Assembly (NCBI RefSeq): GCF_000317045.1 | Contig: NC_019703.1 | Coordinates: 62,001-126,000 of the forward strand | DNA from: Geitlerinema sp. PCC 7407 | Lineage (GTDB): Bacteria > Cyanobacteriota > Cyanobacteriia > PCC-7407 | DNA length: 64,000 nt | Direction: 5' to 3' | Shown here: positions 47,110 through 48,882 of the stretch, piece by piece | Layout: every line of letters begins with the position of its first letter | Numbering within the stretch: position 1 is the stretch's first letter | Notes under the pieces: model-generated | What the model was told of the DNA's origin: nothing | Database searches by the model: none | What the model saw: the letters and a program-made list of their open reading frames with translations, nothing else | Translations under genes and position numbers: made by a program

Positions 47110-47139
47110 AAAAAAAGCCTGAAGCATTTTCAGCTTCAG
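47110..47139 (-). terminator. Terminator-like hairpin at the left end of the second TnpB element
   Basis: A 7-bp stem (CTGAAGC / GCTTCAG, 47119-47125 and 47133-47139). On the minus strand it is followed by seven T residues. It would end transcripts of the ribbon-helix-helix gene. It lies just after the stop of the phosphatase gene on the other strand. Confidence 0.65.
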
Positions 47140-47223
47140 CTAGGTCAGCAGGAGCCTCACGCCAGAATCTCTGATTTGGCGTGAGAGGAATGCGCGGCTG
47201 TGGAGCGAAGCGGAGCAGCCAAC

Positions 47224-47355
47224 TTAATCGGGCAGTGAACGAATGAACTCCCGGATCACATCCGTCTGGGATCTGCCAACCGTTTTGCAATATCGGTCCA
47301 ACCTCTCTTTTTCATGTTTGGGTAGTCGAATATTCACAGATTCTTTACTGGCCAT
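47224..47355 (-). CDS. Small ribbon-helix-helix (CopG-like) protein
   Basis: A 43-residue protein from ATG 47355 to TAA 47224. It shows a ribbon-helix-helix pattern: a beta strand with Ser-Val-Asn-Ile-Arg-Leu-Pro, a helix with Glu-Arg-Leu-Asp-Arg-Tyr-Cys, the turn Val-Gly-Arg-Ser, and a helix with Val-Ile-Arg-Glu-Phe-Ile-Arg. Such proteins are dimeric DNA-binding repressors. It is divergent from tnpB with only 37 bp between the two starts, so it may control both promoters. A minus-strand terminator lies downstream. Confidence 0.75.
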   Translation of the reverse strand: MASKESVNIRLPKHEKERLDRYCKTVGRSQTDVIREFIRSLPD

Positions 47356-47392
47356 GCCTTCATTGTGTTGCATAGTGCGGTACAATCATAGT

Positions 47393-48760
47393 ATGAAATA
47401 CACCTACCAATACAAAGCACTTCCCACCACAGACCAAAAACTAGAGCTAAATCTCTGGCTGCGGATTTGTCAGTATTGGTACAACCGCCAACTGGGCGAT
47501 AGGTTTGATTGGTGGGAGATGAACCGCTCACCCGTCAACGCTTGTCCGCTGGTTGCATCGCTGCCTAAATTGCGCGACAGACCGAACTATTACAACCAGA
47601 AAAAGTATCTGCCAGGACTCAAAAAGGAGACTGTAACGGTTGAATGGTCGGGTGAAGCGCTGGACTTTTCACGCGTTCCAGCAAACACCCTGCAAGAAGT
47701 TTGCAAGCGAGTTGATAAAGCCTTTGAAAGGTTTGTCGCAGGTGACAGCAACGGCAATCGAAGCGGCAAACCCCGATTCAAACCCCAGTCCCGCTATCGC
47801 TCAATGGTGATTGAAGGAGCTGGCCTTGAGCTGCATTCCTGCTCGGTTGGCGGCAGGTATTTGTATATCAAAGTGCCGAAAATCGGACTGATTAAGATTC
47901 GGTCCCATCGTCATTTGCCTGATGGCGCGCTTCTCAAGCAGCTTCAATTCATCAAGAAAAACGATGGTTGGTTTGTGAATCTGCGGCTCGAAGATCCAGC
48001 CGTCCCAGCGATAACCCCTGATTCGATTCTGCCAACCTGGGAGAATTCGTTAGGGATAGATGCGGTGCTGCATGAGCAGGATTACCTTGCCACCTCGGAA
48101 GGGGTGAAACTGCCATCGCTCAAAGCGCTACGGAAAAGCCAGCACAAGCTGACCCGCATCTCGCAGAAAAAGAATGCTCGGAAGCGCGGCTCCAAGGCCC
48201 GCCGCAAACTAGCAAAACGAGAGGGACGGCAGCACCAAAAGATTGCCAGATGCCGTAAGGACTTCCAATACAAAACCGCTCACAAATTGGTGAGAACGGG
48301 CAAGAAAGTTTTCTTTCATGAAGACCTGAATCTTAAGGGTCTATCAAGGCGCAATGCACCCAAACAAGATGAGACGGGTGCCTTCATTCCAAATGGCCAG
48401 TCTGCCAAGTCTGGACTCAACTTGAGTTGGGCAGATGCCGCCTTCGCTCAATTCTTCCAAATCCTCGGACACATAGCTGAAAAAGCTGGGGCTGTAGTGA
48501 TTGCGAAGAATCCCGCTTACACCTCTCAATTGCTCTCGTACCGGGATGAGGTGATCTTCACTGATACGACCATTCGCAACTATTGGGATGAGTCTGAAAA
48601 GCTTTTGGTTGATAGGGACGTCAACGCCGCTATCAACGTCAAAAGAGTGGGGCTGGACGTGTTCCCCACGATAAAACGCCGTAAAGGTAACATCGCGATA
48701 GTTGGTTCTATCACCGATGTTACCTCCAAGGAAGTTCTACGCATTCTTCGGAATGCCTGA
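47393..48760 (+). CDS. tnpB: TnpB variant lacking zinc-finger cysteines
   Basis: A 455-residue TnpB. The three RuvC acidic residues are kept: Asp223 (Leu-Gly-Ile-Asp), Glu310 (Phe-His-Glu-Asp-Leu) and Asp409 (Asp-Arg-Asp-Val-Asn-Ala-Ala). In the interval where most TnpBs carry four zinc cysteines (residues 373-408) there are none; the segment instead reads Thr-Ser-Gln-Leu-Leu-Ser-Tyr-Arg-Asp-Glu and Tyr-Trp-Asp-Glu. ATG 47393 was chosen; the frame is open from 47243 through the RHH gene region. It is unlike the other TnpB in this window outside the catalytic motifs. Confidence 0.9.
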   Translation: MKYTYQYKALPTTDQKLELNLWLRICQYWYNRQLGDRFDWWEMNRSPVNACPLVASLPKLRDRPNYYNQKKYLPGLKKETVTVEWSGEALDFSRVPANTLQEVCKRVDKAFERFVAGDSNGNRSGKPRFKPQSRYRSMVIEGAGLELHSCSVGGRYLYIKVPKIGLIKIRSHRHLPDGALLKQLQFIKKNDGWFVNLRLEDPAVPAITPDSILPTWENSLGIDAVLHEQDYLATSEGVKLPSLKALRKSQHKLTRISQKKNARKRGSKARRKLAKREGRQHQKIARCRKDFQYKTAHKLVRTGKKVFFHEDLNLKGLSRRNAPKQDETGAFIPNGQSAKSGLNLSWADAAFAQFFQILGHIAEKAGAVVIAKNPAYTSQLLSYRDEVIFTDTTIRNYWDESEKLLVDRDVNAAINVKRVGLDVFPTIKRRKGNIAIVGSITDVTSKEVLRILRNA

Positions 48761-48764
48761 GAAG

Positions 48765-48793
48765 CCTACACCATGCCGGTAGGTTGGTGTAGG
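48765..48793 (+). repeat. Right-end hairpin of the second TnpB element
   Basis: 9-bp stem (CCTACACCA / TGGTGTAGG) with an 11-nt loop, 4 bp after the tnpB stop. In known elements the 3' part of the guide RNA lies here and the guide is read beyond the border. Confidence 0.65.
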
Positions 48794-48882
48794 AGCGTCA
48801 CGCCCCAAGCATTCCACACAAACGTTCTCAAAATTGAGCAACCCTACAGACGAGGCATCCCGGCAGCGCCTGGGGCTAGCCC

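What the first reader, a model, noticed from the sequence alone, without database searches (positions are those of the whole stretch)
47224..48760. TnpB without zinc cysteines paired with a divergent RHH repressor gene
The TnpB keeps all three RuvC acidic residues but has no cysteine in the stretch (residues 373-408) that normally holds the zinc finger. A 43-residue ribbon-helix-helix gene starts 37 bp away in the opposite direction. The pair is enclosed by hairpin ends. This may be a self-regulated TnpB lineage in which the RHH protein represses tnpB.
Basis: partly seen in the sequence, partly recalled or inferred. Interest (0 to 1): 0.65.

Follow-up and report, generated by a model that had tools for sequence, protein, structure and literature searches.

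The report
TnpB nuclease under mirror-image repressor switch
A small mobile element in a cyanobacterium pairs an RNA-guided DNA cutter (TnpB) that lacks its usual zinc finger with a tiny repressor gene that, by its DNA signature, probably shuts off both genes; this points to how such cutters are kept in check, although the zinc loss and the repressor turn out to be unrelated traits.

Summary
In detail: tnpB (47393-48760; RuvC D223/E310/D409; no Cys in residues 373-408), a divergent 43-aa RHH gene 37 bp away, and hairpin ends.

The two traits are independent. Zinc loss arose once and marks a conserved 35-row cyanobacterial TnpB clade with a replacement motif and purifying selection. Only 8 of 40 loci of that clade carry an RHH gene; many zinc-bearing TnpBs also do (at least 14 changes on the tree). 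RHH occupies the divergent slot that the Y1 transposase gene tnpA fills in sister elements with the same ends.

The repressor reading gains strong sequence support. A 25-bp inverted repeat, ATTGTA-N13-TACAAT, lies 29-39 nt upstream of RHH in 18 of 38 RHH/tnpB loci (0.36 expected), in 0 of 51 tnpB loci without RHH, and in held-out RHH loci not facing tnpB. In the window it scores 11/12 and sits exactly 6 bp from both start codons, so both genes look leaderless and jointly repressed.

Closest known logic: CvkR/Arc control of cas12k, but those Arcs are another RHH family (convergence). The same RHH family faces one c2c8 gene beside a CRISPR array. Binding, repression and cleavage are untested.

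The parts
47137..47222 (+). left end of the element; subterminal hairpin CTCACGCCA...TGGCGTGAG at 47156-47185. First base uncertain by a few nt (47135-47142)
   Evidence: 87-94% identical to left ends of tnpA-bearing relatives L070/L073 and 88% to own-genome elements; inverted repeat
47224..47355 (-). rhh gene, 43-aa ribbon-helix-helix protein (frame open to 47385)
   Evidence: Pfam RHH_1 above cut-off; orthologues under purifying selection
47362..47386 (.). predicted RHH operator ATTGTGTTGCATAGTGCGGTACAAT; contains the -10-like boxes of both genes, 6 bp from each ATG
   Evidence: 11/12 match to the consensus ATTGTA-N13-TACAAT shared by RHH loci; only two sites with at most 1 mismatch in the genome
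47393..48760 (+). tnpB, 455 aa, RuvC triad D223/E310/D409 intact, no zinc finger
   Evidence: NCBIfam guided_TnpB 163 bits against cut-off 100; alignment; AlphaFold model and Foldseek hits to TnpB structures
48509..48616 (+). codons 373-408: replacement of the TNB zinc finger by the clade motif PAYTSxxLxYRDExxFTDCxIRxYWDE
   Evidence: conserved in the zinc-less clade; dN/dS 0.08-0.18
48690..48801 (+). right end / 3' part of the omega-RNA scaffold (5' limit not determined), hairpin 48765-48793, ends GGAGCGTCAC
   Evidence: 11 of 15 predicted pairs have compensatory changes over 16 relatives
48802..48821 (+). predicted guide segment (flank of the right end; length assumed)
   Evidence: first bases after the conserved GTCAC end; role inferred from known TnpB elements

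Best explanation
A tnpA-less IS200/IS605-type element carries an intact, zinc-finger-free TnpB with its omega-RNA under an autoregulated switch. The RHH protein binds one 25-bp inverted repeat that holds the -10 boxes of both divergent, leaderless genes; it thereby represses tnpB (and the omega-RNA read from the tnpB transcript) and its own gene. The rhh gene replaces the tnpA gene of sister elements between the same left end and the same tnpB start, so the element would depend on a Y1 transposase supplied in trans. Zinc loss is a separate, fixed trait of this TnpB clade. Shown by sequence: anatomy, conservation, slot exchange, operator statistics, omega-RNA covariation. Inferred: binding, repression, leaderless transcription, nuclease activity, mobilisation in trans.
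For: Operator consensus at 10/12 or better in 18 of 38 non-redundant RHH/tnpB loci (0.36 expected), 6 of 34 RHH loci not next to tnpB (0.32 expected) and L160 where RHH faces tnpA (12/12), but 0 of 23 tnpA-slot and 0 of 28 empty-slot tnpB loci. Window site is symmetric, 6 bp from each ATG. 31 of 70 RHH loci lie divergently next to tnpB. RHH dN/dS about 0.02-0.2 where measurable. tnpB dN/dS 0.07-0.14. Left end shared with tnpA elements and homology ends at the stop codon. omega-RNA stem covaries. Experimental precedent for the same logic with CvkR-cas12k (PMC9938897).
Against: No binding, transcript or cleavage data. 20 of 38 RHH/tnpB loci, among them the second pair of this genome (L010), lack the consensus, so their RHH would need another site. 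The palindrome partly coincides with two -10 boxes, although its inner arms also match better within than between loci (p = 0.005, not corrected for relatedness). About half of the RHH homologues are not next to tnpB.
Confidence: 0.72

Rival explanations
1. Antitoxin-like control: the RHH protein binds TnpB or its RNP directly and also autoregulates, so that the pair is an addiction module.
For: RHH proteins are common antitoxins; weak NCBIfam similarity to RelB-type antitoxins, all below cut-off.
Against: The protein is only 43 aa, almost all RHH domain, leaving little for a TnpB-binding tail; it pairs with TnpBs only about 22% identical to each other; many TnpBs of the same clade do without it.
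Confidence: 0.12
2. The RHH protein acts on transposition: it binds the ends or a tnpA promoter in trans and controls mobilisation rather than tnpB.
For: It takes the place of tnpA; in L160 an RHH with a perfect operator faces tnpA.
Against: The predicted site lies between rhh and tnpB, not in the ends; within the genome the site is unique to this element apart from one before a GntR-type gene.
Confidence: 0.1
3. One reading: loss of the zinc finger and RHH control evolved together as one self-regulated TnpB lineage.
For: Both traits are present in the window and in L040, L069, L071, L072, L096, L220.
Against: Zinc-less clade mostly without RHH (32 of 40 loci); RHH with many zinc-bearing TnpBs.
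Confidence: 0.03
4. The zinc-less TnpB is catalytically idle and works as an RNA-guided binder.
For: The TNB domain of other TnpBs holds a CCCC zinc finger (PMC10097598); here it is absent.
Against: RuvC triad invariant in the clade, low dN/dS, omega-RNA kept, replacement motif conserved.
Confidence: 0.15
5. The RHH gene is an unrelated passenger.
For: 38 of 70 sampled RHH homologues are not next to tnpB or tnpA.
Against: Fixed divergent layout a few tens of bp from tnpB in many TnpB clades, purifying selection, shared operator.
Confidence: 0.04

Closest known systems
CvkR (MerR type) and Arc_1/Arc_2 (RHH type) regulators of cyanobacterial V-K CAST (PMC9938897)
   Same: Small DNA-binding gene divergently upstream of a TnpB-derived effector gene; leaderless genes; CvkR shown to repress cas12k through an inverted repeat; Arcs are RHH proteins of 53-72 aa in the same place.
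   Different: Effector here is TnpB in an IS605-type element, no CRISPR or Tn7 genes; the TnpB partner is Pfam RHH_1, whereas the Cas12k-associated RHH proteins found here are 56B_RHH; different operator; RHH alternates with tnpA.
IS200/IS605-family elements (IS605/IS608/ISDra2 type; tnpB-only IS1341 type)
   Same: Hairpin ends, tnpB, omega-RNA at the right end; relatives with the same ends have divergent tnpA-tnpB.
   Different: tnpA replaced by an RHH gene; TnpB lacks the zinc finger.
Type V-U2 effector C2c8
   Same: TnpB-derived; one C2c8 locus with a CRISPR array (Microcystis aeruginosa NIES-2481 plasmid p1) has a divergent RHH of the same family.
   Different: Window TnpB is far below the C2c8 cut-off (99.9 against 350 bits); the other six C2c8 loci lack the RHH.
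TldR (nuclease-dead TnpB homologues that act as RNA-guided repressors)
   Same: TnpB homologue with guide RNA.
   Different: RuvC triad is intact here; the repressor is a separate DNA-binding protein.

Membership tests
TnpB RNA-guided nuclease | passes the curated NCBIfam guided_TnpB model (NF040570) | tested here: met
   163 bits against cut-off 100
TnpB RNA-guided nuclease | RuvC D-E-D triad | tested here: met
   D223, E310, D409 invariant in 61 sequences
TnpB RNA-guided nuclease | CCCC zinc finger in the TNB domain (typical, not required by NF040570) | tested here: not met
   no Cys in residues 373-408; whole clade without CxxC; hence filed as a zinc-less variant
TnpB RNA-guided nuclease | omega-RNA at the right end | tested here: met
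   conserved, covarying stem; expression not tested
TnpB RNA-guided nuclease | RNA-guided DNA cleavage | not testable with these tools
   needs biochemistry
IS200/IS605 element | subterminal hairpins at both ends | tested here: met
IS200/IS605 element | own Y1 transposase TnpA | tested here: not met
   slot holds RHH; five Y1 genes elsewhere in the genome, three of them in elements with a similar left end; so a tnpA-less relative
RHH transcriptional repressor | RHH fold | tested here: met
   RHH_1 above cut-off; 9 of 14 relatives match RHH_1
RHH transcriptional repressor | palindromic operator at its own promoter | tested here: met
   sequence evidence only
RHH transcriptional repressor | DNA binding and repression | not testable with these tools
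   EMSA and reporter assay proposed
CvkR/Arc - cas12k regulator pair | Cas12k partner in a V-K CAST | tested here: not met
   partner is TnpB; the genome's Cas12k is elsewhere (L189)
CvkR/Arc - cas12k regulator pair | same RHH family as the Cas12k-associated RHH | tested here: not met
   Cas12k-associated RHH = 56B_RHH; TnpB partner = RHH_1
TldR | lost RuvC residues | tested here: not met
   triad intact
Type II toxin-antitoxin | antitoxin that binds and neutralises its partner | not testable with these tools
   weak antitoxin similarity below all cut-offs

The most novel reading that the evidence does not exclude
An RHH gene with a mirror-image 25-bp operator is a mobile control cassette for RNA-guided nucleases in cyanobacteria: it repeatedly displaces tnpA in IS605-type elements and has entered at least one type V-U2 CRISPR locus, in parallel with the separate CvkR/Arc control of Cas12k, so that restraining TnpB-type nucleases is a general selective problem solved many times by dedicated repressors.
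Probability: 0.45. Interest if true: 0.78.

Novelty: new variant of a known kind. Interest (0 to 1): 0.6.

Why it matters
How TnpB nucleases are restrained in their hosts is largely open. A named repressor and a 25-bp operator found in many elements make that question directly testable, and the arrangement mirrors the control of Cas12k, a TnpB descendant. A natural TnpB clade without the zinc finger would also tell what the TNB domain really needs, which matters for compact editing tools.

Tried and rejected
Rfam scan of the element: no hit. Decay of a single copy: rejected. Coupling of zinc loss with RHH: rejected. Descent of the Cas12k-associated RHH regulator from this RHH: not supported, different RHH families. 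General RHH-C2c8 association: only 1 of 7 loci. Solo omega-RNA-like copy L002 as a guide against another site: its flank has no second copy in the genome. The only other operator-like site in the genome (L236) lies before a GntR-type gene and is probably that regulator's own site. PDB profile search with the RHH: nothing useful. First, looser palindrome search gave only a weak signal; fixing the geometry made it clear. Literature searches for TnpB or IS605 with ribbon-helix-helix or CopG found no description of this pairing, but many subscription papers, including large TnpB surveys, are not held. The whole genome was not available as a file, so it was searched piecewise.

Full report
OBSERVATION. 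The window lies in a 4.68-Mb cyanobacterial genome, as G000:C1:62001-126000. tnpB is 47393-48760 (+), 455 aa. The rhh gene is 47224-47355 (-), 43 aa from its ATG. The 37 bp between the two ATGs, the hairpin ends and the absence of Cys in residues 373-408 are as described. TnpB passes the NCBIfam guided_TnpB cut-off (163 against 100 bits). An AlphaFold model (mean pLDDT 83) finds solved TnpB, Fanzor and Cas12f structures first; the global superposition is loose (TM about 0.4), so only the family is taken from it. D223, E310 and D409 are invariant in 61 relatives.

ZINC LOSS. Relatives down to about 56% identity (L040-L047, L069-L108) have 0-2 Cys in the region and no CxxC pair. In its place is a conserved motif, PAYTSxxLxYRDExxFTDCxIRxYWDE...VDRDxNA. 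The next nearest TnpBs, at about 44-47% identity, have CxxC...CxxC. On a 93-row tree the zinc-less rows form one clade of 35 rows with SH-aLRT 100. This is a quick tree without bootstraps, and two frame-broken members (L094, L097) could not be scored for zinc. dN/dS against close relatives is 0.07-0.14 for tnpB and 0.08-0.18 for the former zinc region, where synonymous change is partly near saturation. So this is a stable variant, not decay. For comparison, the TNB domain of ISDra2 TnpB carries a CCCC finger (PMC10097598), shared with the Fanzor SpuFz1 (PMC10432273).

WHO SITS IN THE DIVERGENT SLOT. Of 40 zinc-less loci with a visible slot, 7 have this RHH family (window, L040, L069, L071, L072, L096, L220), 1 has another RHH family (L093), 15 have a Y1 tnpA and 17 have neither. 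L220 was found through its RHH, so the unbiased figure is 7 of 39. Zinc-bearing TnpBs also have RHH, including a second pair in the same genome (L010: TnpB 46% and RHH 51% identical). RHH against anything else needs at least 14 changes on the tree. Some rows were collected through the RHH itself, so the tree does not estimate how common RHH is. Among TnpBs over 82% identical to the window, the slot holds one of two RHH subfamilies or tnpA. The left end is shared (87-94% with the tnpA elements L070 and L073), and the homology of window and L070 ends at 47226, the edge of the rhh stop codon. In the window's genome, elements with a similar left end carry tnpA or nothing. Reading: rhh replaces tnpA, and the element should depend on TnpA in trans (inference).

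REVERSE COUNT. The RHH alignment matches in 140 of 390 cyanobacterial genomes. Of 70 loci fetched in rank order, 31 lie divergently next to a tnpB, 1 next to a tnpA (L160) and 38 next to neither. With 29 TnpB-like hits in 4.68 Mb, adjacency by chance would be roughly 0.1% (my estimate). Partner TnpBs include some only about 22% identical to the window's.

OPERATOR. In RHH loci tnpB usually starts about 6 bp after a TACAAT-like box; this is not general in tnpA-slot or empty-slot loci. Testing spacings showed a peak at 5 nt between 10-bp arms, only in RHH loci, and the four inner positions of the arms match better within a locus than between loci (permutation p = 0.005, not corrected for relatedness). 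With the consensus ATTGTA-N13-TACAAT at 10 of 12 or better, 18 of 38 non-redundant RHH/tnpB loci have it, 29-39 nt upstream of the RHH start (0.36 expected from shuffles). Loci not used to derive it also have it: 6 of 34 RHH loci without a neighbouring tnpB (0.32 expected) and L160, where the RHH faces tnpA (12/12). None of 23 tnpA-slot and none of 28 empty-slot tnpB loci has it. So the site goes with the RHH, not with tnpB. The window site 47362-47386 scores 11/12 and lies exactly 6 bp from both ATGs. In the whole genome only one other site has at most one mismatch, before a GntR-type gene. Two leaderless genes around one operator that covers both -10 boxes is the simplest reading; transcript starts were not measured. 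Twenty of the 38 RHH/tnpB loci lack this consensus, among them the second pair of this genome, so their sites must differ if they are regulated too.

OTHER ELEMENT PARTS. The right end has a conserved stem; 11 of 15 predicted pairs show double changes over 16 relatives, as expected for the 3' part of an omega-RNA. RHH dN/dS is about 0.02-0.2 where synonymous change is measurable.

KNOWN SYSTEMS. The same control logic is published for type V-K CAST: CvkR (MerR type) represses cas12k from a divergent gene, both on leaderless mRNAs, and Arc_1 and Arc_2 RHH proteins occupy the same place in other CASTs (PMC9938897). Cas12k is in 91 of 390 genomes and in this one (L189). Upstream neighbours in the fetched loci are MerR-like, a 56B_RHH-type RHH, or an XRE-like protein. 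The TnpB partner is RHH_1, so the likeness is best read as convergence; the published Arc alignments could not be opened to compare directly. On the Microcystis plasmid NZ_CP025929.1 a c2c8 gene (480 bits) beside a CRISPR array of at least 23 repeats faces an RHH of the TnpB-partner family; six other c2c8 loci do not. I found no paper describing RHH beside tnpB, in a library that lacks many subscription papers.

VERDICT. A zinc-less TnpB clade is real. An RHH-controlled TnpB cassette is real as anatomy and very likely a repressor circuit. The two are independent. New variant of a known kind, interest 0.6.

Noticed in passing
L226:4500-8301 (NZ_CP025929.1, about 105500-109300): A c2c8 (type V-U2) gene beside a CRISPR array of at least 23 repeats on a Microcystis plasmid faces a divergent RHH gene of the TnpB-partner family, 56 bp away. 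Its intergenic region lacks the operator consensus.
   Followed up: partly
L189 (own genome, G000:C1:3406576-3408804), L208, L210, L213, L215: cas12k genes with a divergent XRE-like HTH protein (CDCSLTTVNHWFSQGEHRR) upstream, which is not among the three regulator types (MerR, Arc_1, Arc_2) of PMC9938897.
   Followed up: partly
L160:1117-1682: An RHH gene faces a tnpA gene, not tnpB, over a perfect 25-bp operator; a tnpB lies downstream on the RHH strand.
   Followed up: partly
L002:1501-1591 (G000:C1:650561-650651) and L008:1501-1557 (G000:C1:4520306-4520362): Right-end/omega-RNA-like copies without tnpB (95% and 88% identical to the window's right end); L002 abuts the 3' fragment of what looks like a chemotaxis receptor gene, L008 lies close to another TnpB gene. 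Remnants or stand-alone guide RNAs.
   Followed up: partly
L029, L059, L068, L093: A second, different RHH family (MSERRLNKLRxYAxxKDKTVTQIIEDWIDRLP) also sits divergently upstream of tnpB, once in the window's genome and once in the zinc-less clade.
   Followed up: no
window genome, sites: About 35 copies of the roughly 60-bp left-end sequence are scattered over the genome, about twice as many as the related tnpB genes, so some are solo ends or lack a recognisable tnpB.
   Followed up: no
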